Of a DNA stretch of 64,000 nt, positions 5,201 to 40,397 are shown one piece after another. Under the pieces are notes generated by a model. That model worked only from the letters and a program-made list of their open reading frames with translations. It ran no database searches and was not told where the DNA came from. How positions within the stretch are numbered: the first letter of the stretch is position 1; every line of letters begins with the position of its first letter. Position numbers and translations under genes: made by a program. This DNA comes from Apostichopus japonicus (lineage: Eukaryota; Echinodermata; Holothuroidea; Aspidochirotida; Stichopodidae), in NCBI RefSeq assembly GCF_037975245.1, contig NC_092568.1:4599001-4663000 (forward strand). Direction: 5' to 3'.

Positions 5201-6830
5201 AGAGTGCTATAATTGGGGACTATACAGACTACCTTTAAGTAGCCTGGTAAATCACAACCATTTACTAGTTCAAGTTCCATTGTTACAGGTTCATCTGGCT
5301 CCTATGGATAGGTACATTGATTGCCTGTCCTAAACTATTCAGGCATAACAAAGAACCCACTGTTAGCCCTACTGAATTTAGTGTGGCTCACAGACAACTA
5401 ATCTGCTAAGCTTCTTAAGTTCTGGCTAACTTTCTGTCAACAATAAAACTAAAGTGAGAGCCTATATTTAAAGAGATAAACTAACTAGTACTGCATGTTA
5501 GCAAGTGTTTAGTGTATAATTTGTTAAATAGTGTACAGTGCTAGATTTTACTGTAGATAAATTCAAAGCAAACAATCGTGTATTATGGTGCCTAAAATAT
5601 TTGGAAGAATTAAGACGTGTAATAATTTGAAATGTTTCGAAATGTTTTACTTTTCCCAACTTATATCACTGAAAACAGATCCATATACCTATTACAAAGA
5701 AATGATAGGCTTACTATAGTGTTCATTTGGGATGCACAGAATCTTCTCAGAACCCAATCTTCTAAATTCTTAATGTTATGCTGTATTGGCCCCAAATATG
5801 CCAGATATTCAAATATGGTCACATTTGATCAAAATTCTTAAACTGTTTTATTACCACCTTGGAGGAAATGTACCTCACTGGGACATTCAGTCTTCTTATG
5901 TGTTCATTTCAAATATCTGAGAACAATTTGGCAAGTAAAGACCTCCAGGAATGTACTCTTTGGAAACTTCTAGCAATTATAGAGTGCTTTACTTTGGGGC
6001 CTATACAGACTTTTCAGTTCCTTGCTATTACTTTCTGTTAACTACAGTACATATATGACTTAAGTGGAATCAGAGGCCTATTTTTAAAGAGATTAACTGG
6101 TACTGCATGGTAGCAATTGTATATAGTGATTAATTTTTAAAAGAGTGTAGTGAACCTGTGCAGAGCTAGAAAAACATAGATAAATTCATAGCATGTTCAT
6201 TTTATCCTGATTAACGGTGACATCCCTATGTTCCGATGTCTCTATGTTCCGATGTCTCTATGTTCCAACAATTTGTTTGGACTCTTAATTTTTTTTGACC
6301 AAAATTTTTTCTGACCCAATTTTTTGGGGGAAACTCAATCTTTTTGGTCCCCCATTTTTAGGACCAAATTTTTGGGTGGACTTAATTTTTTGGGCCCCAA
6401 ATTTTTGGGGACCCAATTTTTTTTGGGGGACTCAATTTTTTGGACCAACATTTTTTCTGACCTACCTTTTTTTGGGGGACACAATTTTTTGGACGCACCA
6501 CAATTTTTTTCATGAAAAAGAAGGGCCCAAAGTTTGTTATGAGTTTGTTTTGGTCCGAAAAAAGTTGGTCCGAAAACATGTTGGTCAAAAATTTGGGTCC
6601 AAAAAAAGTTAAGTCCTAAAAAATTTGGGTAAAAAAAATTGAGTCCAAAAAAATTGTCGGAACATAGAGACGTCGGAACATAGAGATGTCAGAACATAGA
6701 GATGTCAGAACATAGAGATGTCAGAACATAGAGATGTAACCTCATTAACAGTACTAATATAAATGGATGCAGATCCTTATATATACCTTTGGTGAAGAAC
6801 TGATAGGCTTACTATAGTGCTGATGTGGGA
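5200..6830 (+). repeat. diverged tandem duplication, two units
   Basis: The stretch around 5205-5720 is echoed in order at about 5975-6830. ACTTTCTGTCAACAATAAAA and TACTGCATGTTAGCAA (5430-5505) recur in altered form at 6028-6115, and GATAGGCTTACTATAGTG (5705) recurs at 6800. The second unit is interrupted by the element at 6216-6741. No coding content was found. Confidence 0.55.
6216..6741. mobile_element. hAT-like MITE with repeated CTATGTTCCGATGT motif
   Basis: The ends are GGTGACATCCCTATG and, reversed, GGTTACATCTCTATG. They are flanked by 8-bp direct repeats TGATTAAC (6208-6215) and TCATTAAC (6742-6749), seven of eight matching. A 16-bp unit CTATGTTCCGATGTCT is repeated about three times at the left end, and its complement (GTCAGAACATAGAGAT) about five times at the right end. 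The middle is a low-complexity series of phrases such as GGACCAAATTTTTGGG in both orientations, so the whole unit can fold back. It has no coding capacity. The 8-bp duplication points to hAT, but the superfamily is inference. Confidence 0.7.
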
Positions 6831-7310
6831 TGTGCAGATATAACATTATTGTTACAATTAATTAATTATATCTGAGTACTTGCATTTCATTTAGTGGACT
6901 GCTGAGTCCAAGGCCCCCCGAGTCCCAGTCCAGCAAAAGTGGACCCGAGTCAGGACTCAGGTCCAGACAACAGCTTTGATATTTAGAGCATGGAGAATGG
7001 GGGTACCAGGGAATAATTTAGTGCTTTTAGCAGTTCTGAGGTTTTTCATTTCTTTAGCTTAAAATCGTTGAAAACACTAGGGTTATGCATGCAAAAAACT
7101 GCTACACAATTTTTCCATTGGTGTAGGAATTTGACCAGATTGTGTACGAAATGAGAAGGGATACTGGATAAATTATTTGCTGGGTATAGTGCAGACGAAG
7201 AAAATACTAAAGTTGGGCTTTCCTGCAAGAGGTCCCGTGCTAATGACAGCTGGTGGGGTTTGGAAACAACCAGTTACCATGCACCACTAACTCAGATATT
7301 AACAAAAGGG
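6750..7310. other. no gene seen
   Basis: AT-rich sequence. A short self-complementary patch rich in GAGTCC/GGACTC at 6895-6970 looks like a decayed foldback fragment. Nothing else is supported. Confidence 0.4.
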
Positions 7311-7719
7311 ACCATCATCAGGGCCCCCCAGTCCCCTACATGGCCCCCAGTCAGCTCATTTGGCCCCACCCCTAATAAAGGTCCCTATTTCGGCATTTAA
7401 AAGAAAATTTAAAAGATAACACAAACCTAAGAATTAATTTACACATGACATCTTATGGCATTTATAAGCTATGTCTACCATCAGAATGCCATAGCAAACT
7501 TTAATATTTCGTTGTTGCCATAACAATGACTAAACCTCATCGACCTCCAGATCGGTATGATACTATGACACTCCAGTGCCACCTTCAGTTTCGCAACAAA
7601 AAAATTACTAGGCCGCCTAGCATGCTTTTACTACTACTATAAAAATGTGAGTATTGTAAGTTGATGTTTTTTTTAACAATTGAGTCAGCATTTTCAAATA
7701 AACAAGTACTACTGGCCTG

Positions 7720-8215
7720 GGAAATAACATATACATATTGCACCAAAATACAAGGAGGTTTCTAAAATCCAAAAAATTCTCAATAGACACCCCTCCCCAC
7801 ACACAACCATAGTGTACTAGTAAATAACATTTTCAAAATGGGGTGCTAAAGGGGAATCCCTCCCCTTATACTCCTCCCCACGTTTCCTACACCTAACCAG
7901 TACTGTCTTATAACCTATTTTATTGCACCATATCTCATCTAGGAGCTTTCTAAAATCCAAAAATTCTCAAAGAGGGAGGGGGACACCCCTTAATCCTCTC
8001 GCACCCCTCCCCCAACTTTTCTCCACACAACAAATACTGGGAAATTACCTATAAATATTGCACCATATTTCATCTAGGTTTCTAAATCAAAAAATTTCTC
8101 AGAGGACACCCCTCCCCACACACAACCATAGTACTAAGGAATATCCTATGAATATTGCACCACATTTCATCTAGGAGCTTTCTAAAATCCCAAAAATTCT
8201 CATAAAACATGTCAT
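7720..8215 (+). repeat. degenerate tandem repeat, about 130-150 bp unit
   Basis: The phrase TATTGCACCA...TCATCTAGGAGCTTTCTAAAATCC followed by GACACCCCTCCCC occurs about four times with heavy divergence. A related pair of units is present at 36240-36490, so this is a dispersed family. Confidence 0.6.
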
Positions 8216-8287
8216 CTCAAAAAAAGTTTTGATGCAATTTGCAATGCCTGGGAAGTACCATGTAACACCATTACAGGCAACCTGGGG

Positions 8288-9386
8288 GGGGGGGGGGGGA
8301 GGGGGTCTGCCCTATATCCATAAGGTCCACTATTCATAAGGTTCATTGTTCATAAGGTTCGTTATTCATAACAAGCATTATTTTTATAAAAAGGTTCGCT
8401 ATTCATAATGGAAATAAAGTTCGTTATTCAAAATAAAAAGGGATCATAATTCATAAGGTCCAGTATTCATAATGGAAACAAAGGTTCGATATTCATAATG
8501 GGCAAAAAGGTTCGTTATTCATAATGGACAAAAAGGTTCATTATTCATAATGGGACAAAGGGTTCGTAATCCATAATAGACAAAAGGTTTCGTTATTCAT
8601 AATGGAAAGAAAGGTCTGATATTCATAATGGAGCGAAGGGTCCGTTATTCATAATGGGAAAAAAGGTTCGTTATTCATAAAAGGAGAAAGGGTCCGATAT
8701 TCATAATTGAACAAAGGGTTCGAAATCCATGATGTGAAAAAAGATTCGTTATTCATCATAGGAGAGAAGTGCATCATACAAGTGCAAAAGACGTCCTCTA
8801 TTTTCGCAGACGCCTATAGTGTTCAACCACTGGCCTCAACATACTTTTTATTCATAGAGGGGGGACACAGGGGGCACAACTGTCCTATGGGGGGCACCAC
8901 CAGATGCTGGGCGGATGCATAATTTTGCAGAGAATATGAGCCACACACTATCAAGACCATGCTTCACCCTACTGTATACCCCCTGCAGCAAAACCTACAT
9001 TTTCGACATATTAACGGCATAAACTTGTACATTTCCTAAAGGGGGTCCTTTTCCTCATTGTGAATGATACTGAACCTCTTCGGCTATGCCTATTATGAAT
9101 AACGGACCCTCTGTTCCATTATGAATCTATATATATCTATTTATGGATTACGAACCCTTTGCTCTAAATTATGAATATCGAACCCTTCGTCCTATTATGA
9201 ATAACGAGCCTTTTTTAATCATTATGTATATCGAACCCTTTTACCAATTGTGAACAACGAACCTTTTTTTTTCATTATGAATAACAAACCTTATGAACAA
9301 TGAACCTTTTGGCTCATTATGAATAGCGAACCTTATGAACAATGAACCTCATGGATATAGAACCTAATGAATATCGGGCTGTCACC
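8288..9386. mobile_element. hAT-like element with repeated TTCGTTATTCATAATG motif
   Basis: The left half (about 8304-8760) holds more than a dozen variants of GGTTCGTTATTCATAATGG, spaced roughly 24-28 bp. The right half (about 9065-9380) holds the complementary AATAACGAACCTTTT series, so the arms are inverted. The flanks are identical 8-bp ACCTGGGG at 8280-8287 and 9387-9394. The right end, read inward, is GGTGACAGCCCGATATTC, close to the terminus of the element at 6216 (GGTGACATCCCTATGTTC). A poly-G run separates the left duplication from the equivalent left terminus near 8304. It has no coding capacity and is nested in 7319-9517. Confidence 0.65.
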
Positions 9387-9540
9387 ACCTGGGGGGCATT
9401 TTGGCATAGATTTTCTTGGTACACTATATTCGCCAACTGATTGTGGCCCTTCGCTTAGATGGTCCCTTTTGTGAAATGGCCACCCCCCCCACTTAGAATT
9501 TCTCAAAAAAGGCCCTGACCATCATTGTGGTACTAACTAA

Positions 9541-9576
9541 GTGGAACACCTTCATCGGTTGGCCTTTAGCATATAA
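9541..9576 (+). mobile_element. left remnant of dispersed MITE split by DIRS
   Basis: ACACCTTCATCGGTTGGC followed by AGCATATAA resembles the block CGCCACCATCGGCTGGCGCGCAGCGTACAA found at 59430. The continuation of that block (GAAAATTTTTGGCC type) resumes directly after the DIRS element at 16121, so the DIRS insertion appears to have cut this copy in two. Confidence 0.45.
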
Positions 9577-9615
9577 ATTCCAAAACTTACTGGTTTGGAT
9601 ATTTACGAGTGACGA

Positions 9616-9736
9616 GCTTACCTGTCTCCTCACAACCTTAGCACTTCATTCTACTGTGCCTATAAAGTCTTGGTAAAATAATAACACTGTGCGCCCTCTA
9701 TGACCGGGCCCCCCCCGGTCACTCCTCCTTTCTCAT
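9616..9736 (+). repeat. DIRS left inverted terminal repeat
   Basis: It begins GCTTACCTGTCTCC and ends near CTCCTTTCTCAT. It matches the reverse complement of 15984-16104 almost base for base, including the GGGCCCCCCCCGG tract. The 39-bp outer extension 9577-9615 is not shared with the right end. Confidence 0.9.
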
Positions 9737-10214
9737 GAGACCATTCCTAAAAAGTGGCCTCACGGTTACGAAGATAGGGGGTGGCTAGGACCCTCTAGCC
9801 AGCCCCAACAACTCCTGTCGAGAAAACTCCCTTAGGTTAGCCCCTAACAAAAAGTCACTGACGCCTTCCTAGCAGGGGGGAGTGTAACCCTCTCCGGCGC
9901 AGCGGAGCAGGGGGAACACTCTCCTGGACCCTGCAGGCGTAACTACCCCTTATCCTAACAAGGAGCCTAATTTGTAAGACCCGACACCTGTTAACCGCAA
10001 AAACAACTTAGGTGAGAGCGTATACGTAGTAGAACATGTAATATAAACGCATACGAAAAACATAAAGTTACACTCACCGATAGACCTGGCCGGAGACTCT
10101 CTAGTCGTAGTTGGCTCTGTCTATCTGGTGTGGTGCCTGGAGTCGTGAGTCAAGTCGAACGACCGCTCCCCCGTCCGGCTGTGTCCCACCTTCCTCGGGG
10201 GAGGGAGGCGGGAA
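9737..10214. other. 3' non-coding part of DIRS element
   Basis: Lies between the left terminal repeat and the internal complementary region, downstream of all three frames. It is moderately GC-rich, with no frame and no repeat that I recognise. Confidence 0.6.
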
Positions 10215-10312
10215 TGGAGACAGGTAAGCTCGTCACTCGTAAATATCCAAACCAGTAAGTTTTGGAATATTTACTTCGCTCCTCGCTTACCTGTCTCCTC
10301 ACAACCTTAGCA
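10215..10312. repeat. DIRS internal complementary region
   Basis: 10215-10267 is the complement of the left end (9577-9629), and 10268-10312 is the complement of the right end (16076-16120). The junction GTTTTGGAATATTTACTT equals the reverse complement of right end joined to left end, AAGTAAAT + ATTCCAAAAC. In DIRS-1 such a region templates circularisation of the cDNA. Here it also contains the stop codon of the recombinase frame. Confidence 0.92.
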
Positions 10313-11320
10313 CCGAGTGGCACTGCCCGATGGTGGGAGGCCCGAGGGGTGGGACCTATTACCCGCCGGACCTCGCATCACCGCGCTACCAAATGCCGCC
10401 TCGGCGTGTAGTGTGTCAGTTAGATAGCAGGCGACGAACGTAGTTGGTGTTTTCCACGCTGCCGCCTTGAGGATGTCCTCTATCGGGATACCGGCAAAGA
10501 GGGCTGTGGAGGCTGAGATCCCTCTGATGTCGTGGGCTCTTGGCCGGGCAGCCCCCGTTGTGAACGGGCGTATTGTCTCCACTAGCCATCTGGACAGGGT
10601 ATCCTTGGAGGCCGATGTGTAGGGTGGTCGTGGCAGGATAAAGAGGGAAGTTGTTTGTCTTAACTTCTCTGTCCTGCTTAAATACCACTTCAAAGCCCTG
10701 ACTGGGCACCATCGTTTGTCCTCGGCCACTGATGACAGGGTTTTAATCTCCGGGATGAAGATGTCTCCCGGCAAGAAGGTCAGGGCCTGGTTCTTGGCAA
10801 TGAAGGCCGGGTCTGGAACCATCCTCACCCCATGGCCCTCGAATCTGATGTGGTTCGGTTTGGTCGTTAGGGCATGTAGGCAGCTCCTCCTTCTTGCTGA
10901 CGCTACCGCAATAAGAAAGAGTGTCTTCTTTGTGAGGGCAGCTAGGGAAGCGTTTGCCATTGGCTCGTAGGGAGGCCCTGCCAGGGCATGCAGTACTGCT
11001 GAGAGCCCCCAGGAGGGGGCTAACCGTCTGACTCGTGGACGGCGATTAGCCATGCCTTTGATGAGCTGGGCAATGTCTAGGTTATTGCCCAGAGTGGAGC
11101 CGTCTGGAAAACCCTGGTGGATGGCAGCGATGGCCGACCTGTAATTTTTGATTGTAGAGACTTGTTTGCCTTCTCTGAAGAGTGAGAGTAGGAACTCGGC
11201 AGTCTGTGCTATAGAGATCTTAGTAAGCAGTATCTGTCTAGGCCGGCACCACTGTTCGAACTTCCGCAGGCGGGAATCGTAAGTCTTTGCGGTCGTTCCC
11301 CTTCTAGCGTCGGCTGCCAT
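10307..11320 (-). CDS. DIRS tyrosine recombinase (integrase)
   Basis: Inserts the circular DIRS DNA by lambda-integrase-type recombination. From the ATG at 11320 (MAADARRGTT) the protein is 337 residues. An N-terminal helical SAM-like half is followed by the catalytic half with the family's residues visible: arginine in ASARRRSCLHAL, the H-x-x-R box in AHDIRGIS, tryptophan in AAWKTPTTF and the nucleophilic tyrosine in ACYLTD. The same frame stays open upstream to 13207, but that part is only the shadow of the RT frame. The true start may lie a little upstream (SLRQRGFSEAAAA). The frame overlaps the RT frame by about 110 bp or more and ends at TAA 10307-10309 inside the internal complementary region. 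All catalytic residues are intact. Confidence 0.9.
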   Translation of the reverse strand: MAADARRGTTAKTYDSRLRKFEQWCRPRQILLTKISIAQTAEFLLSLFREGKQVSTIKNYRSAIAAIHQGFPDGSTLGNNLDIAQLIKGMANRRPRVRRLAPSWGLSAVLHALAGPPYEPMANASLAALTKKTLFLIAVASARRRSCLHALTTKPNHIRFEGHGVRMVPDPAFIAKNQALTFLPGDIFIPEIKTLSSVAEDKRWCPVRALKWYLSRTEKLRQTTSLFILPRPPYTSASKDTLSRWLVETIRPFTTGAARPRAHDIRGISASTALFAGIPIEDILKAAAWKTPTTFVACYLTDTLHAEAAFGSAVMRGPAGNRSHPSGLPPSGSATRC

Positions 11321-13239
11321 CGCGGCAGCTGCCTCTGAAAAACCTCTCTGTCGTAGGGAAGACCGGACAGTTTCCAGGCAACTAACTGCAACCCCTTGAT
11401 GTCCGGGTGGGAGAGTGTTCCCTGTCTCTGGGACAGTAGGTGGGGCTTGTCTGGTAGGCTCGCTGGGACGTCCATGAGGAGTTGGGGAATCTCTGCGAAC
11501 CAGGGTCTGCGAGGCCAGAACGGGGCTATTAGAATAAACCTGCCCTTGGAGTTCCGGATCTTTCTGAGAACCTGCCCGACCATGCAAAGCGGTGGGAAGA
11601 CGTAGGCCTCTAAGTGGTCCCATGGGAGGGACATCGCATCCGTGTGGTAGGCCTGGGGGTGGAACCGTCTGGAACAGAAGGTCTGGAGCTTGCTGTTTGT
11701 GTATGTTGCGAACAGGTCTATCATCGGCTTTCCGAAGATCGCGAAGATTCTGTTGCAAGTTTCTTGTTCCAGCGTCCATTCGTTGGGGTCTAAATGCCCC
11801 CTGGACAAGGCGTCTGCCATCACGTTGAGCTTGCCCGCAATGTGGGAAGCTCGTAGGATCGTGCCCGAATCCTCGGCTGCTGTTATCACCTCCCATGCTA
11901 GCCGGCAGAGCTTCTCTGAGTGGGTGCCCCCCTGCCGGTTGATGTAAGCCACCACTGTGGTGTTGTCCGTGAAGACCGTGGTTATTGTACCCTGTATGTG
12001 CTCGTTGAAGGTTTCCAGAGCTCTCTTGACTGCGATCATCTCCAGGATATTGATGTGGAATGATCTTTCTGTTGGGGACCACGTTCCCCAGGCTGTGCGG
12101 TTGCTCCAATGAGCCCCCCATCCGGTGAGTGAAGCGTCTGTCGTTACAGATGTCATTGGTAGCTCTATTGTGAAAGGTACCCCTTGACTCCAATTGTCTG
12201 GGTCGAGCCACCATCGGAGGTGTTGAGTGGTTTCCTCCGACCTGTGGATTGGTGTTGTCATGTCCGGATCTGTGGGGTCTGCGGACTTCAGGAGGTGAAG
12301 CTGTAGGGGTCGCATGTGTAACCTGCACAGTCGGACTACATCGACCAGACTGGCCATGAGTCCCAGGGCTCGGAGCCACATCATTTTGGGTGACTCTTGG
12401 TGTGACAAGATCTGTTGCGTGGTCGTCCTGACCGCAGTGATCCTTTCTTCCGAGGGTCGGGCTACCCCGGCGGAGAAGTCTAGTATCGCTCCAAGGAACT
12501 GGGTCGTCTGAGTTGGAGATAGTCGAGACTTCTTCTCGTTCACGATCCAGCCCAGCTCTCGGAGGGTATGGAGCGTTTTGTGTACGTTGTCGGCGGCCTC
12601 TGACTGAGAGCTCCCTACCACCAACCAGTCGTCGAGGTACACGTACAGGGTGACCCCTCTCCTTCTGAGGTAGGAGACTACCGCTCCCGCTATTCTCGTG
12701 AAGACTCTGGGGGCCGTGGACAGGCCGAACGGGAGCGCCCTGAACTGGTAATCCTGTTCTGCATACCGGAACGTTAGAAACCGTCGGTGATCCTTGTGCA
12801 CTAGGATGTGTAGGTAAGCGTCCCGTAAGTCTACGGTCGCCGCCCACATGCCCTTTCTGAGTAGGGGTAATATTATATTTAGGGTTTCCATACGGAAGTG
12901 TTTTGGCCTGATAAATTTTGTGTTGAGGGGTTTTAGATTTAGGATGGGACGCCAGGTGTCGTCCCGTTTTTTGGTCAGAAAGAAAGAGGACCGGAAGAGT
13001 GGTCCCGTCCCTCCCGGTACCTCCACAATTGCCTGCTTGGCCAGCAGGGCCAGAATTTCCCCTTCTAGAATTAGGCGTTTGACGGGGTCTGTGGGTGTGG
13101 GTGTCTGTCTTCCTCCGCCCCCGAAGGGTGGGCTGGAGGAGAATTCTATTCGGTATCCGTGTTCGACTGTGTCCAACACCCACTTGTCCCCGCCAATGAA
13201 TTCCCATTGCTGGGTAAAGTTTGTCAGTCTCCCCCCCAC
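11209..13239 (-). CDS. DIRS reverse transcriptase / RNase H
   Basis: Polymerase of the DIRS element, about 676 codons in this open stretch. The RT palm motif YVYLDDWLVV lies near residue 200. RNase H follows with its acidic residues visible in order: TTDASLTGWG, NILEMIAVKRAL, FTDNTTVVAY and NVMADALSR. The C-terminal section (IDLFATYTNSKL ... FPPLCMVGQVLRK ... FWPRRPWF) is typical of DIRS and Ngaro proteins. The frame has no early ATG: the first listed codon is GTG, and the frame is open further upstream past the Gag stop. It is +1 relative to Gag, so synthesis by frameshift, reinitiation or splicing is likely. Its end overlaps the recombinase frame. Confidence 0.92.
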   Translation of the reverse strand: MGGRLTNFTQQWEFIGGDKWVLDTVEHGYRIEFSSSPPFGGGGRQTPTPTDPVKRLILEGEILALLAKQAIVEVPGGTGPLFRSSFFLTKKRDDTWRPILNLKPLNTKFIRPKHFRMETLNIILPLLRKGMWAATVDLRDAYLHILVHKDHRRFLTFRYAEQDYQFRALPFGLSTAPRVFTRIAGAVVSYLRRRGVTLYVYLDDWLVVGSSQSEAADNVHKTLHTLRELGWIVNEKKSRLSPTQTTQFLGAILDFSAGVARPSEERITAVRTTTQQILSHQESPKMMWLRALGLMASLVDVVRLCRLHMRPLQLHLLKSADPTDPDMTTPIHRSEETTQHLRWWLDPDNWSQGVPFTIELPMTSVTTDASLTGWGAHWSNRTAWGTWSPTERSFHINILEMIAVKRALETFNEHIQGTITTVFTDNTTVVAYINRQGGTHSEKLCRLAWEVITAAEDSGTILRASHIAGKLNVMADALSRGHLDPNEWTLEQETCNRIFAIFGKPMIDLFATYTNSKLQTFCSRRFHPQAYHTDAMSLPWDHLEAYVFPPLCMVGQVLRKIRNSKGRFILIAPFWPRRPWFAEIPQLLMDVPASLPDKPHLLSQRQGTLSHPDIKGLQLVAWKLSGLPYDREVFQRQLPRWQPTLEGERPQRLTIPACGSSNSGAGLDRYCLLRSL

Positions 13240-13270
13240 CTGCGGAATGGCCGCGGTGAGGTGGGCACCC

Positions 13271-15397
13271 CTAGGGCTGGGAGGCGAACGACGGTCGCGT
13301 GGAGGAGCGGTCGTTGTCCCGTCTGGGAGGCGCTGTGCCTCTGCCTCCTCTCGGTGTCCAGGAGCGGGTCGGGCGGTATGCCGTTCCCCTGCTTCTTCCT
13401 CTGAGAGCTCCTCTGCTCAGTGGTCTGGCGGGTGCTGCTCTCGCTCCCCTGGTTGGCTTGTTCTCCCTCGGTCGGAAGGGTCTCGGTCTTTGTGTAGCCG
13501 AGGGTCTAAACTCCGATTTAGCCAGGGTCTCTCTCCGGGCTACCTCTTCCTGTAGTTTTTTCTGGAAGTTGCCTCCGAAGAGGTCCTCACCGAGCACTGG
13601 CAGAGCTAGCATTCTGTTCCTTGCCTCGGTTGATGGCCAGCGGATGGCGGAGACGACGTTCTCCCTGCGGGCTTTTACGGAACGTGTAGCGACTCTTGCA
13701 AACTGGTCGTATGCGAGCCTTACGAGGGGTCCTAGCAGTAGGAGGAGCTGGCCCGCTTCATCCCTGGACACCTGGCTGTCGTCCTCAGGGAGTTGCTGGT
13801 GGTGCCGCATAAGGACCTCGGCTGACAGCATTAGGACTGAGGCGAACTTCATGCCTGAGCGGGCCGCTGTGTCCACCTCAACTAGAAGTTCTTCCAGCTT
13901 TCTCTGGTCAGGAGTCTTAAAGGTTTGGGAAGATGAGGCCCCATGCTCGGCCTTCAGCCTTTCTTTGGCCTCCTGGGGGATGGTTGGGCATTTGAATAGC
14001 GCCCTCCAGGCCTCGTCTGGTACCCTGACTGCCCTGTCTGCCCTGGCTGGGAAGGCAGTCCACCTGTTCTTATCGGCTATGGCCTCGAATCTATCATAAC
14101 ATGTTGCATCAACGGGCATGGTGGTCTTTGGCTTCGATGACATCTCGCCGGTTGCCGTGAGTTTGGACACCCGGCCTGCCTTCTGTGGCTGGGTCTCAGG
14201 TTCCTCGAACCCCAGGTGCCGTCTGAAGATGTCGGCCGCCCGTGCCATTAACTCTTGGGGGAGCGCTCCTCCTGTTATGGGAGCCTCCTCTGGTTCGTAG
14301 CTTCGACTAAGGCTATCTTCCATAGGATCGTAGTCGAGGGGTTCTGTGGGATCCATAAGATCCCCCTCGTCCTCCAAGCCGGATAGATTTACCGACGCTC
14401 TGCAGTCCAGGGCGTCTGGATCCGAGACCGGATGTGGGGCCGTAGTAGGGCCGGAGCCTGTGGAGCCTGGTGCCTTGTCGGTCACCGTGGTTACTCTCTG
14501 CTCTATCAGGGGGCGTAGTAGGCCGGTAAGTTGAGCCAGCCATGCTGGCTCCTCCTCCTGTCGCCGTCTCGGGGACCGGCGCCTCCTCTTCGCTCTCCTG
14601 TAGCCGTCGTCAGACGACTCTGAAGACTCGTCGGAGGTCGGGGAGTGTCTTCTCCTCTCCTTCCGTCTCGGGGATCTTGAGTGCGTTCCGGATCTATCTC
14701 TTCTAGGTCTGCGGGAGGTCTCTCTCCCCCTGCTTTCCCGGGTCGGGGTCTCAGTAGGGACCCGTCTTTCCGGCTCCCTCTCCGGCTCCCTGCTATGGGA
14801 CCGGCTCCGTCTCACTGACCCTTCGATCGCACTCTCTTTCGGACCCGAGCTCTCTGTGGCCGGCGGCCCGCGCTCCGTGGGTCTATCTTGCTGCGGTCCA
14901 CACTGAGGCGTAACCTCTAGCCCGGCCGAGCAGTGCCTCTTCTTGAGAGGTCTTTTCTTGGCAGGAGCCTTCCCTTTGCTCCTGCCCTTCCCTTTGGTCG
15001 TAACTACGCCGGACGTCGCCGGGGCCGTTAGGGGTACTCTCTCTTTCTCTTTCTCTTTCTCTTTCTCTCTCTCCTCTCTCTCTCCTTCGGCCCTCTCCTG
15101 GCCACTCTCCTCCACCTCTCTCTCTACCTCACCCTCTTCCTCTCTCTCTCCCGTCCCTCCTATATCCTCTGCCCCGATGTCGTTCGGGATCAAGTCTAGC
15201 TTGCCCTGCAGCTTGGTTCGCAGACTCTTGAGCCACTGATCAATCTCCTGCCACTGGGTCGGCGAGAATTTTATACAGACCAGGCAGGGGTCCCGTCTGG
15301 TGCAGGATCTGCACTTGGGGCATAGGTCGTGCTCGTCCCAGGCTCTGCCTGGCCGAAACATCGAGCAGCTGACACACTTCAGCTGGTTACGAGACAT
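13271..15397 (-). CDS. DIRS Gag-like protein
   Basis: About 708 residues from the first ATG (15397). Seven further in-frame codons upstream begin with TTG. The N-terminus has clustered cysteines (CVSC, CPKC, CTRRDPCLVC) that look zinc-binding. A long glutamate/lysine-rich and then arginine/serine-rich segment follows (EREEREKEKEKEKER, SRSPRRKERRRHS). The second half has a conserved-looking block (AFPARADRAVRVPDEAWRAL, LPVLGEDLFGGNF) and an RG/RP-rich basic tail suited to RNA binding. It is the first frame after the right terminal repeat. Function in particle assembly is inferred from position and composition. Confidence 0.8.
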   Translation of the reverse strand: MSRNQLKCVSCSMFRPGRAWDEHDLCPKCRSCTRRDPCLVCIKFSPTQWQEIDQWLKSLRTKLQGKLDLIPNDIGAEDIGGTGEREEEGEVEREVEESGQERAEGEREEREKEKEKEKERVPLTAPATSGVVTTKGKGRSKGKAPAKKRPLKKRHCSAGLEVTPQCGPQQDRPTERGPPATESSGPKESAIEGSVRRSRSHSREPEREPERRVPTETPTRESRGRETSRRPRRDRSGTHSRSPRRKERRRHSPTSDESSESSDDGYRRAKRRRRSPRRRQEEEPAWLAQLTGLLRPLIEQRVTTVTDKAPGSTGSGPTTAPHPVSDPDALDCRASVNLSGLEDEGDLMDPTEPLDYDPMEDSLSRSYEPEEAPITGGALPQELMARAADIFRRHLGFEEPETQPQKAGRVSKLTATGEMSSKPKTTMPVDATCYDRFEAIADKNRWTAFPARADRAVRVPDEAWRALFKCPTIPQEAKERLKAEHGASSSQTFKTPDQRKLEELLVEVDTAARSGMKFASVLMLSAEVLMRHHQQLPEDDSQVSRDEAGQLLLLLGPLVRLAYDQFARVATRSVKARRENVVSAIRWPSTEARNRMLALPVLGEDLFGGNFQKKLQEEVARRETLAKSEFRPSATQRPRPFRPRENKPTRGARAAPARPLSRGALRGRSRGTAYRPTRSWTPRGGRGTAPPRRDNDRSSTRPSFASQP

Positions 15398-15419
15398 GCT
15401 GTAAAACTCTCGAGTCAAG

Positions 15420-16104: not shown

Positions 16105-16120
16105 GAGGAGCGAAGTAAAT

Positions 16121-18010: not shown

Positions 18011-18019
18011 CATGAGCTG

Positions 18020-30180: not shown

Positions 30181-30199
30181 TTTCTTTAAACAAAATTCT

Positions 30200-31303: not shown

Positions 31304-31319
31304 TTGTTAATATTAGTGT

Positions 31320-31825: not shown

Positions 31826-32064
31826 TATTGCCACACTGGCCAGAGTCCTTAGTACATAAGATGTTTGGCGATATTGCTTTGTATTCTCTCCTAATTTCAA
31901 TTTGATTGAATTGCACTATCGAGGACAATGCATTTGGATAATGGTACTGGGGGGAAGTGGTGTTCTGGGTAGGCCTATAATTAATCCTACCCAGATGTGG
32001 CAGGGACTCTCTCTAGGAGGGCATATTGAGGGACACTTTACCATTACAGAAGGTATTGTGCCTG
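31826..32064 (+). repeat. direct repeat of about 240 bp, copy A
   Basis: Matches 34313-34552 with few differences (AGATATTGCCACACTGGCC through CATTACAGAA). The first 55 bases resemble one unit of the minisatellite at 33330-34110, which suggests a local duplication rather than an LTR. Confidence 0.75.
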
Positions 32065-33186
32065 AGCGAAAAGAGACTCCAAAGTCTTTAAAGGAGCATT
32101 TTGTGTTGGTTTTCAATATTTGGTACTCCTTTTTTATCCCATAACAATGTTGCTTATTAGCTTGACTTGTCCTGTTTCACGTCCAATAATATTACAACAA
32201 ACATTGTCAATTTTACATTTTTGGAACTTTGACTTTGACCCAAATCACATCAAGTTTTCATATCAAATTCTTGCAATCTGTGCGATCCAATCCATTGCAT
32301 GTATTGTTAGCACTTACTGTAAGGCTCAAAACCTAAGTACTTCGAACTATCATGATCGATCAACCAAAACTCATTAAAATATGTCCTCAAACTTTGCATG
32401 TTGCACTAAATAGATTAACATGTAACAAGACTCTAGTTTCTGGGTTCTTTCATTACAGCTCAAAGTCATATGGTGTTGCTTATTTGTGTTAATTAATTTT
32501 TAATAACAAATAACTAGTGCAAGGTACCCCAGGGATTCCATAGGGCTTGTAACTCAAAATGTAAATGAACTGTACAATAGAGAGGGCTATTTCCAGTTGT
32601 TATGTAATCATTTTAAAGATCAATAGCACAATTACATTATGCAAGGTTTACTATTAGTATGGTGCAATTTATATCTTCTAGTTCAATATAAGGGGAGGGA
32701 GGGAGGAATACCTTAAAAAAATATATGTTCAATCTATGTTGCATATTTATAGCTGATTTGGAGGTATACTGTACAGAAAGTCCAAATGTATCTCTCAACT
32801 ACCTATCCTCCTTTAAAGCTAAATTTAGGTCACAATGAGGCCACATGTTCTGTGAAAAAAAACATAATACATGCAGGGGAGGGGGGGTATGCTCTGTGAC
32901 AAAAAAAACATAATACATGCAGGGGAGGGGGGAGGAGGATAATACATGGACAACTTTTATAAATGTTTAACATGTTGCTCTTGCAATTCAGGAGAGTACA
33001 AAAATAAAGGGTCACTGAAGGACAGTATACAGGAAAAATGAGGTAATGAGACCATAATTCCTTTATGTTAATTCTGTGACAACAGACAAAAACAGAATAC
33101 TGCAGTGTTCTCTTTTTATGGTACTTTAGAATGTAGTCAGGGTTGAGGATCCAGACTTGGGGAAAGACCCATTTTTTCACTTGTTC
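32064..33186. other. no gene seen
   Basis: AT-rich. A short tandem duplication at 32850-32935 carries AAAACATAATACATGCAGGG twice. No exon supported. Confidence 0.4.
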
Positions 33187-33285
33187 TTTTGTAAATTAAT
33201 TTACTTTCTTTGTAAAGCGCTTTGAGCAGTAACTTTTGTTTACTGATTTGGCGCTATATAAGTCTCATTTATTATTATTATTACT
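33187..33285 (+). mobile_element. SINE/LINE 3' tail
   Basis: TTTGTAAAGCGCTTTGAG, then TTTGGCGCTATATAAGT, ending in (ATT)n. This is the kind of 3' end shared by CR1/L2-type LINEs and the SINEs they mobilise. Only the tail is present. Confidence 0.6.
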
Positions 33286-33329
33286 AAAGGGGAGCTCATT
33301 AGAGCCTTAACATGAGAGCAGTGAAGGTT

Positions 33330-34110
33330 AATCAACAGTTGGGGTGATCAATACAAAACATGTTTGGAGATACTCTCACACTAGTGTCTCAATACATAAA
33401 ATGTAAAGTGATATTGTCACACCGGCATGTGTCTCAATGAATTACTATTCATGATCACAATTTGGCCATGTTCTCAATACATGACTTGCATGAGGATATT
33501 GTACAAATTTAATGATCACACTGGCTTTTGTCTCTCTTTACTGTCAGTCTACATAACATGTGTGAAGATACCGGGACAATGAACTGTGTTCAAAACATGA
33601 ATAAAAATATTGTCACACTGGCCCGTGTCAATACATTTAACTTCAGTGTTGTCATTCTGGCCTTTGTCTTTAAGAATAACATGTGAGGAGATATCATCAT
33701 AATGGTCATTGTCTAAATACATGGATGGAGATATTGTCACATTTGCCAATTCTCAACACTGGCATGTGTCTCAACACATTAAAATTATAATGACATTCTA
33801 TTATCTCAATACACTCACATGTATCAGAGATAAATTGTCACAATGGTTTAATTGTCTCTATACACTAACATGCATATTGATACTGTCACACTGACCAGTG
33901 TTTGAATACAACATGTATGGAGGTATTTTAACACTGACCTGTAACTCAATGCGTGTCTCTACAATACTGTCACAATGGCCATTGTATCTAACATGTATCC
34001 ATCCTTGGGTATGTTGTCACACTGAGCTTTGTCTCTAAACATAACCTGTACGGAGGTGCTGTCACACCGGCCAGTGTCTCAACACATACATAGCAGGTAC
34101 AGCAATAGGA
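33330..34110 (+). repeat. degenerate minisatellite, about 50-60 bp unit
   Basis: A phrase of the type GAGATATTGTCACACTGGCC followed by TGTGTCTCAATACATAACATGT recurs about a dozen times with strong divergence. Frames through it are not conserved. Confidence 0.65.
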
Positions 34111-34129
34111 CCATTATCACAAGTGTTGT

Positions 34130-34290
34130 TTTTTTGTTATTTCTCATTTCCTAATTTTTGTTAAGGTTGCTAGCTTTGTTAAACATTTATTATTTGTCTT
34201 GCTAGTACCCTGTGTATATATGCTTAATTATACTTAACTATGTATTTGTACTTGCATGCATACACAAAATAAATCAAATCAAATCAGTGC
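34130..34290 (+). mobile_element. retroposon 3' tail ending AATCAAATCAAATC
   Basis: A TA-rich 3' segment ending in a short AATCA tandem at 34268-34286, as at LINE or SINE insertion ends. The body was not identified. Confidence 0.4.
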
Positions 34291-34312
34291 CTAAATAGGT
34301 AGAATGTAAGAA

Positions 34313-34552
34313 GATATTGCCACACTGGCCAGAGTCCTTAGTACATAAGATGTTTGGCGATATTGCTTTGTATTCCCTCCTAATTTCAATTTGATTGAAT
34401 TGCACTATCGAGGAAAATGCATTCAGATAATGGTACTGGGGTAAGTGGTGTTCTGGGTAGGCCTATAATTTGTCCTACCCAGATGTGGCAGGGACTCTCT
34501 CTAGGAGGGCAGATTGAGGGACACTTCACCATTACAGAAGTATTGTGCCTGG
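34313..34552 (+). repeat. direct repeat of about 240 bp, copy B
   Basis: Partner of 31826-32064. Ends differ just after TATTGTGCCTG. Confidence 0.75.
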
Positions 34553-34559
34553 AAAATTC

Positions 34560-37500
34560 TTGATAATTTGACAATCAACCTCAAAAAGCTGCTTTAACAT
34601 ATATCAGTGATGGACTTTGCTCCTTCACATGATATTTATGCAGTGTAAGAAAATGAAAAGTTGATGACCAGTGCAATGTACAAGTCCTAACAGAAATTGG
34701 AAAAGCAAATGTACTTAAATGCCTATTATTCTTAATTTTCTTGCAATGATAAAATATCTGGTAAAACTTCATTTGATTTCAAGAATTAACATGACATTTA
34801 TTGGGAGGATTAACTGGTAAAAGGACTGCTAAGCATTGACAAGTTATAATTAACCTTCATCTCAATTAAGTCTTAATCCGTAGTAAACAAAGCAATAACG
34901 GCGGACCATTCAAGTTACTTCCTGTTTGATTCAGTCTTAGACAGCAGATTTACACCATATAGTTTAAAGTGGTCCATTGTAGTGTGAACTAATATCCTGC
35001 CACACCCACTCACCCCCTAGCTGGATCCGCCCCTGATATAGTGACAATGTTTATGCATTAAATGGAAACTTAACAATTTCAGGCATTATACTGTATGCAA
35101 CTGTCATTAGACATATATCAGAGACATGTAAATCAAGTCAAGGATCCTATACAACTGATAATTTGGTGAGGAACTGAATTATGTAAACATACACATTAGC
35201 AAAGTGGCAGAAGATATACTTCAGTATGCTATAGGCCTCTACCAAATTTATTTCTTGCTTTCCCTATTGTTCAAGTGTTTATATTTTCAAGCACTCAAAA
35301 AAAATATGTTACAAACATTCAAATGCTAAAATCCACAAGTTATCCTAACAACTTACATTTAATGATTAGCATATCACATAGGTTTGCTATGTCTTGTTTT
35401 TTGCATAAAAGGCAAAAAATAACCAGTTAGCAGCTTTTAATGAAACCCTTGCATACAGTACTTGCAAATATAAAATATAGCTCAAAGCATTCCCTAAATT
35501 ATCGGGGTACTAATTATGGCTAACCTCAAAGTAGAACTAAGTTAAGCTGGGAGGCACTTTATTGCAAAACACAGAATGGAATATTTTAACCATACTGAAG
35601 TACATTTAAAGCGATTTGAAAGAACAAAATGTAAAACGTGGAAAGTTTCTTATATACTTATTCAGTTAATTTTCATTTATTTGCTTTTCATTGTTTTAAT
35701 TGCTATTTTTATTTATTATTATCATTTTATTTATTTATTTAATTATTTGTTATTATTTATTACTATTTTTTTTTGGGGGGGGGCAGGTTGTCTGAACCCC
35801 AAGAATCCCCTGTTTGTACAGGTATGTTATGTACTGTCTCATGTAGTATTTTGAAACAACTGAATAATAACAATGATTAAACACTACTCCAATCCTTGAA
35901 GAAACTTTATCAATTAAGAAGGAATTGGATCAATGAATCAATTTTGTTGTTGATACTACCTTTACCAAATCCTGCACCCATAGTTCTGAAGGTTATTTTT
36001 CCATTTTGAAGAAGATTACTGATAGCTTTACAAATGATTTGTAAATTATTAACTACAGGAAAAAAGTTAAAAACTCATACAGTTGTAATTCTTCCCTCCT
36101 ATAAGGATAACACTATTCATACTGCTTTGCAGTTCACATAGACCCTGTATACTTTCCAACTGATTTAATCCAAAATACTGCGCCCCCCCCCCCCAAGGTC
36201 CACATCTCTGCAAATACTAAATTCAAATGATTCAATTAGCAATGGGAAATGACCAATAAACATTGCAACATCTTACATCAAGGGCCTTATAAAATCCAAA
36301 ACATTCCAAAAGGGGAGGTGGACACCCTACCCCCCCCCCCTTGGACCACTCCCCCAAGTTTCCCTACCTGCAGATATTAACTTCAAATATGCAATGACTT
36401 GTACTGAGAGAGAACCAGTAAATATTGCATCTAATTGCTACAAAAATTCCAAACATTTCTTAAAGGGGAAAGGGGGAACCCTTTGTCCACTACCCCCCCC
36501 CCCCTGGCCCCACTCTCAGACACCAAATTTTACTACCAACAGCTTCCCAAATGACCCACTTAAGCAACAAAGACATCTCTTCAACCCTTTCCATGTAATT
36601 TACCATGAAGGTATCCCATTTCTAGTTACTAAATCAACTGTAATTATAATTTTTCTACAGTAGGGTGTGATTATATAACTTCTCTGTATGTGTGGATATA
36701 TTATGACTTTTACCTCTCCCTGACTTCTGTAGCTCTCACCTCCCCCATTTATTTTGGTTTCTAACTAGGCCATACACAACAGTCAGTCTCATCATCTATA
36801 GCGTCCACCCCCCCCCCCACCTGGAAAAATATGTACGCCCCAGTAGGAAAACTACATGAAAAAATTGTAAGCATTGCTTGACAGAGCTGGGAATTAAACT
36901 GATACCTCATTTTCTACTTCCCATACCAATATTTTTAAATTCAGTTTGTCATACAATTTTGTTGCTATAAAATAATGTACAGATTTACTACATGCTAGTG
37001 AGTTCATTCTAAAATCCTGCATATTGGTGAAATGTGAAACCTATAACACCAACATCTATCTTGATCACATTTTCTATTGCATAAACATTTGTACTTTGTC
37101 AATCAATTTCAACATATCCACTCTGGAACATGTTGAAAAAGTGTAATTAAATTCTACAAGTTGCATATGAAATTGTGTGAGTAGATTAATAAATTGTAAA
37201 GGTCCATTCCCAAATGTTGTTTATGACAAATAGCACTCAGTTATTCAGCAGAATGTACTAAGACACTTTTCAATTTTAAGCTGATGTTTTGCTTTGATAT
37301 GTCACAATAATAGAGCATTTTTGTGCAATTCAGAATACTCAATCTTCTAGCCTTTTTAGGTATGTTCATTTAAGCTATGCTCAATGTCATGAATGCATTT
37401 TTAATGAATTAAGTGCTGAAGTCAACTCCTCAGTGTAGTTCTCATTGGTAATGTTACCTTCTGTATTATAAACTTCTTTACACTGCCCAAAATCTTTTGC

Positions 37501-39140
37501 CTTCATATCAACACTAAATCAACCTAGTATTAAATGCAGCATTTTTCCTTCACAGATTTTGTGTGACCTTGCAAACTGGAGGCAATACAGTAATATTATG
37601 AATTTTATTCAATTAGTCAATGTATAGATAAACTTAGACATCCAAAAGTTGAAAGCTTGAAAAATCCATAGATATGGTATGTATAGCTTTCTGAATATAG
37701 CACACTGTTACTTATGAGCAATTGTTTCAAAACCCATTTTACAAGGTGTTAAATGGTTGAGAAATGCACCTAAAATCTGAACACACAAAGTCCCTGTACC
37801 CTCCCGCAAAAGCCTTTCAAATGGTTTGACTATACACCACTCAAATGCCACCACTCTTGGCAAAACATTTTCAGGTGAATTCATGTCCATACTACTTGAT
37901 TATTTGTGCATGCATCAATAACAATTAAAGGTGACTTACCAGAGTATATCTATAGCCAATTGTGGGTAGTCAGCCATTCATAATTGATGACCAATGGAAT
38001 TCTCAGTTTGTAACAAATTTCTGCCACAGCTGTGTAATACAAACAAACATTTTTCAATGCAATATCCTTAACTATATTCTCAGTGATGTACATACAAAAT
38101 TATATTCCAATGATGCATACAGTTTTTGTAATAATGCAAGACCCCTAAATGTTAAGTCCTTTGCCTACTGTAACAAATTACTGAAGTATTATACTAAATA
38201 AACAATAATAGTTTGCTGTTACTGGCTTGGTGATCAATGGTTTTCCCTGCTTAATGAAACATACTTGAGTTAATAAAGCAAACTATTGTTTTATGCAATA
38301 TTGTGCTCTGTACTTCTTCAAACAAAATATTCAAGTTAAGTAGCCAGACATATGAAAAAGAATTGGTAATTACTTGATGAAGAGATTCTTGGCCCCACAA
38401 AATTAACCATTTGGAGGTAAGAAAATATGAATTACTTAAAATGATAAATTGATGAATCTCTGCAAATCATTGGAGCTCCCTATTAATCAAAGTGCCTACT
38501 TCGCCAAAGTGTTCAATAGGCCTTATTACATACTTAATAAAGATAAGAGGAACACTCACCATCACAGATTCAAAATGATCCCATACTTTCTTGTATATTT
38601 TTCGTGGCAGTTCCATGCAATTAGTGTACAAATTACACTAATCTTTTCCTCAATTACCAGTGCCCGGGGTTTTCGAGTTACGATTTGTATTGAAGAACCG
38701 ATGTATTTATAAATGCCTTAGTTAAAGCCTACATTCTGGAAATTTAATTGATTATATTTGCAAGCTATGTTACTAGTTACAAATAAATCATGACCAGTTG
38801 TATCATTGTTGAATGTGTATCATTCGTTTACCAACCTAAGCCAAGTGCAGACATGATGCAGGCCTACATATGGCGAGGACAAAAAAGTGTTGAAAATACC
38901 ACACTAGTGTCTAGGATATACATCAAATGTAACTTGTTACAGTAATGACATTACTTCTATCTCTTTACTGCACACCAATGCCAGTTCTCACCAATTACCG
39001 ATTCAGGATAAACATTTTTTCTCTGCTGTATGGATCTATCAAACAATGACTTTTGGAAAGCACTTTATATAAAGTTGCTAAAGAAGTTATAACACTTTGC
39101 GTTGTAACTTGAAATTTTACCAGATCACTCTAGGCATGGT
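34560..39140. other. no gene seen; scattered simple repeats
   Basis: AT-rich (TTATT microsatellite at 35690-35770), poly-C tracts at 36182, 36332, 36492 and 36808, and two decayed units of the 7720-8215 family at 36240-36490. The small frames at 36394, 37962 and 38449 show no recognisable product. Confidence 0.4.
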
Positions 39141-39148
39141 AGAGCATA

Positions 39149-39197
39149 GGTGCTAAGGTTGTGGGGAGACAGGTAAGCAAGGATGCAGAGTAAATAC
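39149..39197 (-). mobile_element. DIRS terminal relic
   Basis: GGTGCTAAGGTTGTGGGGAG followed by ACAGGTAAGC and, after divergence, AGAGTAAAT matches the outer right end of the DIRS element (16077-16120). No other DIRS sequence adjoins it, so this is a solo terminus or a deletion remnant. Confidence 0.6.
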
Positions 39198-39800
39198 ATC
39201 CTTTTCCCTCTGTCATTATTCCAACAGCACAATTTCTACACTGCATTGAAAGCAATAGTTTGGGGCAGATTAGAACTGCACAAGGCAAAATGGTGGCAGT
39301 AATTAAGAACCTGCCCAAGTTCAGTCAAGCGTGAAGGTCAATTGTATGGAGGTGTGTGAACAGGCATTAACAAAGAGGGGTTGTCAGAGAGATGTTTCAG
39401 CCTGATAGTTGCATTGAAAATGTACAGTGTCCTTACGGGGTACTGAATTTGTTCCCCGTAAGGAATGTGTACCCTGTAAGTAATGCTGAAACTCGTATAG
39501 TACCCCATAAGGTATCAAACTTGAACACATTCAAACACACATATAATATATGCATGAGTCATGACTTAGAGCTCCCCTATAAAATCTGTTACAGAAAGAT
39601 GCAACTGGTATTAAATTAACTGAATTGCTTTTTACCCACAATGTTTTATTCTCTTTTCCACCTCATTAATCAATTTTCACCCAAGCCTGAAAAAACATAC
39701 AAAGCCACTCCAAAACACAATGCAGTGTTTACAGATAATGCCATAATAACTAAGTGTTGGGAATAATTACGAAAGACAGCTATCGATGGAGGCTTTGTAG

Positions 39801-40397
39801 GGGTGTTACTAAAACGAATGACAATTGCGTTACACATAACGAATGACAATATGTTTTGCACACTAAAAAATTGCGTTGACTAAAACGAATGACAGTAATG
39901 ACAGCACAGACATTTGCTTCAAGCGGACATCATAGTTCAGACTTCGTGGGTATCTAGATCTAGTAATGTACGGACAAGATAAAAACGCACCTTATAGTAA
40001 GCGAAATTGTAAGTTTGATTTTAAAAAGTAAATTTAACGTCATTTTTACGATATTAATTGTTAGAAACTACCAATACTATAATCTTGAAAAGGCTTCAGT
40101 TATCTTTCTATATAAATCTACAGAGGTAAAAAGCACAGCACTCAAACGCATTCTCACACAAAAACTTTCCCTGTGGTTTCTATCCGTAAATTACAACCCT
40201 GCCTGCAACCCCGTAACATGCGATTTTCCTCAAATCATTTTTGCGCATAAAACCAATAACCGCATTTACTCCACTCCGTTAATCATTCTATCTCCACTCA
40301 ACACTGTCCTTCGTTGTCATTCGCTGTCATTCGCAAATGATAATTAACCCTGTACAAAGTCAATTGTCATTCGCTGTCATTCGTTTTAGTTTGTCCC
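39801..40397. mobile_element. hAT-like MITE with repeated CGAATGACA motif
   Basis: A perfect 8-bp direct repeat CTTTGTAG flanks it (39793-39800, 40398-40405). The ends are GGGTGTTACTAAAACGAATG and, reversed, GGGACAAACTAAAACGAATG. AACGAATGACA occurs three times near the left end, and its complement TGTCATTCG about five times near the right end. Interior without credible coding; the 110-codon frame at 40015-40347 runs into the right-end motif array. Confidence 0.75.

What the first reader, a model, noticed from the sequence alone, without database searches (positions are those of the whole stretch)
6216..40397. Several unrelated hAT-like elements built on one plan: a private repeated motif, inverted between the two ends
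6216-6741 (CTATGTTCCGATGT), 8288-9386 (TTCGTTATTCATAATG), 18020-19752 (GGTCTCGCGGACC) and 39801-40397 (CGAATGACA) each carry a different short motif in several to more than ten copies, mirrored at the two ends, and each is flanked by an 8-9 bp direct repeat. hAT transposases are known to bind subterminal repeats, so these may be amplified binding arrays, each adapted to a different transposase. I know of no named group defined by this architecture.
Basis: partly seen in the sequence, partly recalled or inferred. Interest (0 to 1): 0.75.

Follow-up and report, generated by a model that had tools for sequence, protein, structure and literature searches.

The report
Foldback transposons with mirrored motif arrays
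Four short mobile DNA elements carry mirrored rows of a private repeated motif at their two ends; this is a known transposon layout ('foldback'), but three of the four turn out to share one end design and one spacing rule behind their different motifs.

Summary
All four are mobile families: ends recur elsewhere (534 and 711 exact matches for elements 1 and 4, both ends; 49 and 24 for one end of 2 and 3; zero in controls), with other duplications. The interpretation needs correcting. (1) 'hAT-like' is unsupported: ends start GG/GA, some duplications are 9 bp, no hAT gene was tied to a copy. (2) 'No named group' is wrong: this is the foldback layout (sea-urchin TU, Tm1, Muta1; Galileo's long repeats are similar). 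(3) 'Unrelated' is wrong for three: elements 1-3 share an 11-bp cap and 16-bp units, and 2 and 3 take the same ~10-bp A-rich linker at the same place. (4) Elements 1-3 ride in one ~36-42 kb repeat found at 13 places. No autonomous partner was found; a Mutator-like transposase is my best guess. The genome is probably the sea cucumber Apostichopus japonicus (assembly size only).

The parts
6208..6749 (+). E1 with its target duplications (TGATTAAC 6208-6215, TCATTAAC 6742-6749)
6216..6226 (+). E1 left cap GGTGACATCCC
6226..6266 (+). E1 left array, 16-bp units (3 motifs)
6655..6737 (-). E1 right array, 16-bp units (5 motifs), reverse
6731..6741 (-). E1 right cap GGTTACATCTC (reverse strand)
8302..9386 (+). 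E2; caps GGGGTCTGCCC (left) and GGTGACAGCCC (right, reverse); duplications ACCTGGGG 8280-8287 and 9387-9394 by hand
8315..8756 (+). E2 left array, 16- and 26-bp units
9151..9373 (-). E2 right array, 16- and 26-bp units, reverse (inner edge approximate)
18011..19759 (+). E3 18019-19751 with duplications CATGAGCT (18011-18018, 19752-19759)
18019..18085 (-). E3 left cap (canonical GATTACAGTCC) and array
18560..18896. module inside E3 that also occurs on its own as a repeat (query 541-877; related piece in L060)
19180..19590 (+). tRNA-like SINE module inside E3 (by eye; ARAGORN calls no tRNA gene in the window)
19594..19751 (+). E3 right array (16/26-bp units) and G-rich cap
39793..40405 (+). E4 39801-40397 with duplications CTTTGTAG; ends GGGTGTTACTAAAACG / GGGACAAACTAAAACG; CGAATGACA arrays
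1..39541 (.). large dispersed repeat carrying E1, E2, E3 (left edge about 2,535 bases left of the window)

Best explanation
E1-E4 are non-autonomous cut-and-paste DNA transposons of the foldback kind ('type 2 foldback'). Shown: defined ends, mirrored arrays of a family-specific short unit, 8-9 bp target duplications, no transposase domain in the window copies, tens to hundreds of copies. Shown: E1, E2 and E3 share a plan: an 11-bp cap (G(G/A)T(G/T)ACA(T/G)(C/T)(C/T)C at one or both ends), then 16-bp units; in E2 and E3 a unit is a 16-bp block (GGTTCGTTATTCATAA or GGTCCGCGAGACCGAA) with either nothing or about 10 A-rich bases between blocks. Inferred: a transposase supplied in trans binds the 16-bp blocks, several per end, and cuts at the cap, leaving an 8-9 bp stagger; a linker of about one helical turn keeps neighbouring sites on the same face. 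Inferred: E1-E3 descend from one lineage whose inner motif diverged; E4 is a separate family. Inferred, less sure: the transposase is Mutator-like (MULE). Array length changes after insertion, as one and the same E3 insertion carries 4 to 10 units in 11 copies of the host repeat.
For: Families and ends; end signatures 711 (E4) and 534 (E1), both ends, 49 (E2) and 24 (E3), one end; controls 0. Duplications: E4 8 of 12 exact 8 bp, 3 exact 9 bp, 1 at 7/8; E1 5 of 8 exact 8 bp, 2 at 7/8, 1 cut off; E2 2 of 9 exact 8 bp, 1 exact 9 bp, 2 at 7/8, 1 at 6/8, 2 none, 1 (window) by hand; E3 4 of 9 exact 8 bp (L075 and L076 are one insertion), 2 exact 9 bp, 1 at 6/8, 1 none, 1 spoiled by a G-run. No transposase family in six-frame Pfam scans of the four window elements (one ApeI-like hit at E 0.033 in E4, below cut-off, taken as chance). 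Shared cap: E1-E2 10/11, E2-E3 8/11, E1-E3 7/11; 20 of 200,000 random sets reach that sum, 8 reach all three; E4 5/11 with each. Register: E1 53 of 54 spacings are 16; joint offsets: E2 (26,18,8) 84, (16,8,8) 41; E3 (26,19,7) 47, (16,9,7) 36, (25,18,7) 20, 114 of 114 with the second joint at 7. Array drift. Precedents: Muta1, 8-9 bp duplications, 10-bp terminal motif, nine 12-bp subterminal repeats with 3-4 bp spacers, over 300 non-autonomous derivatives with variable repeat number (PMC5225508, passages); Tm1 (PMC3169594, passages).
Against: No autonomous copy was found. MULE genes exist (38 matches), but none of the 5 MULE loci fetched (5 of 38) bears E1-E4 ends. Longer copies looked at were clustered, nested or truncated (L054, L055, L080, L081, L100). 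Merlin also has 8-9 bp duplications and GG ends (recalled), and Merlin genes are present (12 matches; 2 of 12 fetched, none of the scanned motifs). The cap comparison was made after looking at the caps. The constant block could reflect tandem duplication rather than binding. Not all spacings fit: in E2, 12 of 105 spacings up to 60 bp are off the 16/26 scheme. L078 (E3) and L071/L072 (E2, one region duplicated) show no duplication; L050 has its first unit at 26, not 16.
Confidence: 0.7

Rival explanations
1. hAT elements: subterminal motif arrays bound by hAT transposases, strict 8-bp duplications.
For: 8-bp duplications dominate; hAT genes are common here (150 matches among 150 of 633 candidates scored), one fragment in the window at 61616-62149 (E 0.00072, below the Pfam cut-off); hAT transposases bind subterminal motifs (PMC3143072, passages).
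Against: Ends begin GGG, GGTGACA or GATTACA, and the bases before the E4 ends vary, so no C/TA end is hidden in the duplication (hAT end rule recalled); exact 9-bp duplications in E4, E2 and E3 (one extra terminal G would restore 8 bp in the three E4 cases and L048, not in L077 or L100); no hAT match between a pair of printed ends (by eye).
Confidence: 0.12
2. Merlin (IS1016/IS1595) elements: GG-starting ends and 8-9 bp duplications.
For: End and duplication type fit (recalled); 12 Merlin-domain matches in the genome; one of them (L053) lies beside another mirrored-array element.
Against: 2 of 12 Merlin loci fetched: none of the E1-E4 motifs scanned for, apart from a lone GGTGACA heptamer in L052; the L052 inverted repeat (22 bp, weak, E 0.072) is a different sequence. 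The array in L053 does not flank the gene on both sides.
Confidence: 0.15
3. The arrays have no binding role: they are tandem repeats that grew by slippage or unequal exchange in the terminal repeats and are carried along. (Not exclusive of the superfamily question.)
For: Unit number differs between copies of one and the same insertion (E3 4-10 units in 11 copies; E1 6-9 motifs in 12 copies), so growth does not need transposition; constant offsets can come from duplication alone.
Against: Mirrored motifs are kept at both ends in copies at other sites; two families with different motifs hold the same 16/26 spacing and the same linker position; real binding sites are known in Galileo repeats (PMC3688188, abstract and discussion).
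Confidence: 0.2
4. P-superfamily foldbacks like Galileo.
For: Galileo has long, internally repetitive ends with several THAP sites.
Against: Galileo and P duplication lengths and CA-type ends differ (recalled); no P-type search was run here.
Confidence: 0.06

Closest known systems
Muta1 / Muta5 (Mutator-like, Aedes aegypti; 'type2 Foldback'), PMC5225508
   Same: 8-9 bp duplications; short terminal motif followed by tandem subterminal repeats (12-bp repeat plus 3-4 bp spacer in Muta1, 15 bp in Muta5); many non-autonomous derivatives with foreign interiors and variable repeat number (passages)
   Different: Muta1 has an identified, active MULE transposase; sequences differ; the 16/26 alternation seen in E2 and E3 is not in the passages I read
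Tm1 Mutator/Foldback family (root-knot nematodes), PMC3169594
   Same: variable number of 13-15 bp tandem units in the inverted repeats; asymmetric terminal 7-bp motifs; MITE-like forms; 8-10 bp duplications (passages)
   Different: transposase-encoding members known; usual duplication 9 bp; other sequences
Sea-urchin TU elements (Liebermann, Hoffman-Liebermann and colleagues, 1980s)
   Same: echinoderm foldback elements; by recall 15-bp repeats in an outer domain, 8-bp duplications, interiors made of other dispersed repeats, as in E3
   Different: original papers not seen; I saw only citations of them; no sequence comparison was possible
Galileo (P superfamily) and Tetris, Drosophila; PMC3688188, PMC4079207
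   Same: foldback-like layout with internal tandem repeats in the ends; THAP-domain binding shown for Galileo; 8-9 bp duplications in the complete Tetris copies
   Different: much longer inverted repeats and units (Tetris about 220-bp repeats, inverted repeats up to 1,735 bp); Galileo is a P-type element

Membership tests
Foldback elements (layout class) | Terminal inverted repeats made of a terminal domain plus tandem short repeats of variable number | tested here: met
Foldback elements (layout class) | Dispersed copies with target-site duplications | tested here: met
Foldback elements (layout class) | Variable interiors | tested here: met
   E3 interior holds other repeats; E1 copies 526-723 bp in 7 loci
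Mutator-like (MULE) | 8-11 bp duplications | tested here: met
   8-9 bp; definition PMC6446971, passages
Mutator-like (MULE) | Transposase with MULE domain in an autonomous member | tested here: inconclusive
   38 MULE matches in the genome, 5 fetched, none with E1-E4 ends
hAT | Strict 8-bp duplication | tested here: inconclusive
   mostly 8 bp, but exact 9-bp cases in E4 (3 of 12), E2 (1 of 9) and E3 (2 of 9); an extra terminal G would restore 8 bp in the E4 cases
hAT | Ends beginning C/TA-R-N-G (recalled) | tested here: not met
hAT | hAT transposase in an autonomous member | tested here: inconclusive
   150 of 633 candidates scored; no match seen inside a printed pair of ends (against 32, 48, 49, 66; by eye, printed ends only)
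Merlin | Transposase with IS1595-type domain in an autonomous member | tested here: inconclusive
   12 matches, 2 fetched, no shared array or end

The most novel reading that the evidence does not exclude
E1, E2 and E3 are one transposon lineage with a fixed scaffold (11-bp cap, 16-bp blocks, optional one-turn linker) and an exchangeable address: the 9-11 bp inner part of the block differs between families while cap and geometry stay. Each family would then be served by a transposase paralogue that was re-aimed to a new DNA word, after which all sites of its array were rewritten together.
Probability: 0.3. Interest if true: 0.6.

Novelty: new member of a known kind. Interest (0 to 1): 0.4.

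Why it matters
Foldback elements with internal site arrays are known, but how an array of sites and its transposase change specificity together is open. Three families in one genome with a common cap and register but different motifs give a direct comparison, and the 16-versus-26-bp alternation makes a clear prediction about how sites lie on the DNA helix. The common host repeat also orders three insertions before its own spread.

Tried and rejected
Autonomous partners: end signatures were searched genome-wide, but only the first places are printed (about 100 of 711 for E4, about 100 of 534 for E1, 49 of 49 for E2, 24 of 24 for E3). Long pairs that I followed up did not look autonomous: L054 (several E4 copies side by side, longest frame 115 aa), L055 (1.6-kb E4, longest frame 142 aa), L100 (3.1-kb E2 with a nested E4 relative, longest frame 106 aa), L080 and L081 (truncated E3; the 283-aa frame of L081 is a tandem repeat). 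Their frames were not searched against protein families. Merlin loci L052, L053 and MULE loci L056-L060 do not carry these ends.

Is the large repeat a transposon with the inverted arms as its ends? Rejected: the same sequence continues outside both arms in the four other copies tested (C13, C16, C14, C1; in C13 a further unmatched kilobase lies at the right arm). Its outer edges show no inverted repeat. Six-frame Pfam scans of 1-10306, 16600-26460 and 30850-39540 gave only two sub-threshold hits that I take as chance (DUF468 E 0.043, RELT E 0.045); a third, ApeI-like at E 0.033, is in E4. Not scanned: 15461-16599, 26461-30849 (mirror of the left arm), the part left of the window, and 10307-15460 beyond the three DIRS-like frames. 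Its nature stays open.

Motif number as a driver of copy number: not supported by four families.

PMC3422177 (ATon, passages) was not relevant.
Full report
Check of the observation. In the window the motifs are mirrored at the two ends (E2 has one exception) and lie inside the elements above chance. Tandem Repeats Finder gives period 16 in E1, 16 and 26 in E2, 16 and 26 in E3 and 10 in the right E4 array.

They are mobile families. The own-genome search (671.6 Mb, 35 contigs; the window is C8:4599001-4663000) scored 40 of 585 E4 candidates: the window itself, 39 others at 91-95% identity, and one extra piece at 90%. Exact end signatures: E4 711, E1 534, E2 right end 49, E3 left end 24, with zero in each reversed-pattern control. 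The first two patterns match both ends, the last two one end only, so they mean roughly 355, 267, 49 and 24 copies as lower bounds. Duplications were measured by script on 12 E4, 8 E1, 9 E2 and 9 E3 loci, window copies included: E4 8 exact 8-bp, 3 exact 9-bp, 1 at 7/8; E1 5 exact 8-bp, 2 at 7/8, 1 cut off; E2 2 exact 8-bp, 1 exact 9-bp, 2 at 7/8, 1 at 6/8, 2 none (one duplicated region, L071 and L072), window only by hand; E3 4 exact 8-bp (two are one insertion), 2 exact 9-bp, 1 at 6/8, 1 none (L078), 1 spoiled by a G-run (L050, 6/8 by hand). Six-frame Pfam scans of the four window elements found no transposase.

They are not hAT-like by their ends. E4 ends start GGG, E1 GGTGACATCCC/GGTTACATCTC, E2 GGTGACAGCCC/GGGGTCTGCCC, E3 GATTACAGTCC/GGGGGAATTCC, and the bases just outside vary. 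The hAT end rule is recalled. hAT, MULE and Merlin domains are all in the genome (150, 38 and 12 matches), and none was tied to these ends; only 5 MULE and 2 Merlin loci were fetched, and hAT matches were compared by eye with printed ends.

Three of the four share a plan. Comparing two ends per family over 11 bases, E1-E2 agree at 10, E2-E3 at 8, E1-E3 at 7; of 200,000 random triples of G-starting 11-mers 20 reach that sum and 8 reach all three values, and E4 agrees with each of the others at only 5. This test was set up after seeing the caps. Directly inside the cap come 16-bp units (L050 starts with 26). In E1 53 of 54 neighbouring motifs are 16 apart. In E2, of 105 spacings up to 60 bp, 8 are 16, 49 are 25-27, 11 are 32 or 42, 25 are 50-54 and 12 fit none of these; in E3, of 85, 16 are 16, 54 are 24-28, 10 are 32 or 41-43, 4 are 50-52 and 1 fits none. 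The joint count (8 loci per family, neighbours at most 30 bp apart) shows where the extra bases go: E2 (26,18,8) 84 and (16,8,8) 41; 145 of the 151 cases in the 14 listed classes keep the joint GGTYC-to-motif at 8. E3 (26,19,7) 47, (16,9,7) 36, (25,18,7) 20; 114 of 114 keep it at 7. So the block GGTTCGTTATTCATAA or GGTCCGCGAGACCGAA is kept whole and the linker between blocks is absent or about 10 bases, 52% A in E2 and 76% A in E3. The loci include the window copies and two related E2 loci.

Arrays drift. The same E3 insertion, copied with the host repeat, has 4 to 10 units in 11 copies, and the same E1 insertion 6 to 9 motifs in 12 copies. Unit number therefore changes without transposition, which weakens any simple link to copy number.

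The host repeat. The best copies of E1, E2 and E3 lie together, in the same order, at 13, 13 and 12 places. A 1.9-kb probe from the inverted arm (40 of 56 candidates scored) shows 13 loci with two arms; in 4 of them both arms read in the same direction, so one is flipped. The inverted arms (window 81-3762 with 26471-30714) are internal: sequence outside them is shared too. The repeat runs from about 2,535 bases left of the window to about 39541 (each edge seen in one comparison). The E2-to-E3 distance is 3.1-3.7 kb in the 11 other copies where both were listed, against 9.7 kb in the window, where a DIRS-like retroelement (reverse transcriptase, RNase H, and a weak phage-integrase N-domain just under its cut-off) lies between. 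E1 and E2 have the same flanks in the sister copies fetched, and E3 in those whose left end can be read, so E1-E3 inserted before the repeat spread; E4 lies just outside it.

Mechanism. Best reading: non-autonomous foldback transposons served in trans, with arrays as multiple binding sites. Steps shown: ends, duplications, arrays, absence of a transposase domain, dispersal. Steps inferred: binding, cutting at the cap, helical phasing, Mutator-type enzyme. The closest described case is Muta1 (PMC5225508, passages): 8-9 bp duplications, 10-bp terminal motif, nine 12-bp repeats with 3-4 bp spacers, called a type2 Foldback TE, and over 300 derivatives with variable repeat number. Tm1 (PMC3169594, passages) adds asymmetric terminal motifs, as in E2, E3 and E4. 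Galileo (PMC3688188, outline, abstract and discussion) shows real binding to repeats of this kind. The Tetris paper (PMC4079207, passages) lists sea urchin among foldback hosts and cites the view that the layout may arise independently. TU element details (15-bp repeats, 8-bp duplications) are recalled.

The organism. Assembly size and contig number fit Apostichopus japonicus (671.60-671.63 Mb, 34 scaffolds, 23 chromosomes of 18.21-46.02 Mb; PMC10344927, passages; here 671.58 Mb, 35 contigs, C16 46.04 Mb). This is inference only.

Verdict. Observation confirmed; family label and 'no named group' not supported; a new member of a known kind with a notable shared geometry. Interest 0.4.

Noticed in passing
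window 1-39541 and L051 (965-3500): A ~36-42 kb dispersed repeat, 13 places on 11 contigs, arms mostly 97-99% identical, no coding domain in the parts scanned apart from a DIRS-like insert; internal inverted arms with 142/157-bp satellite arrays.
   Followed up: partly
G000: C3 8.08-8.11M, C12 34.51-34.53M, C1 3.26-3.27M, C2 19.96-19.98M: In 4 of 13 copies of that repeat one arm is flipped; outer and inner satellite arrays of an arm are inverted to each other, so inversion by recombination between them is likely.
   Followed up: no
window 10307-15460, minus strand: DIRS-like retroelement (gag-like, RT/RNase H, tyrosine recombinase-like frames); it would account for the extra E2-E3 distance of the window copy against 11 others.
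   Followed up: partly
L053:2957-3866 and L059:3435-5518: Two further mirrored tandem arrays (about 22-bp and 24-bp units) beside a Merlin and a MULE gene: perhaps more families on this plan.
   Followed up: no
G000 contig C17, mainly 11-26 Mb: C17 (37 of 672 Mb) holds 6 of 12 Merlin and 13 of 38 MULE matches: a cluster of transposase genes.
   Followed up: no
window 47871-48209 and 57976-58332, minus strand: Frames that look like exons of MUS81 endonuclease (by eye; not searched).
   Followed up: no
window 61616-62149, minus strand: hAT dimerisation-domain fragment (E 0.00072, below the Pfam cut-off).
   Followed up: partly
window 50207-50372: Four tandem 42-bp units TCAGCAATGACCATG....
   Followed up: no
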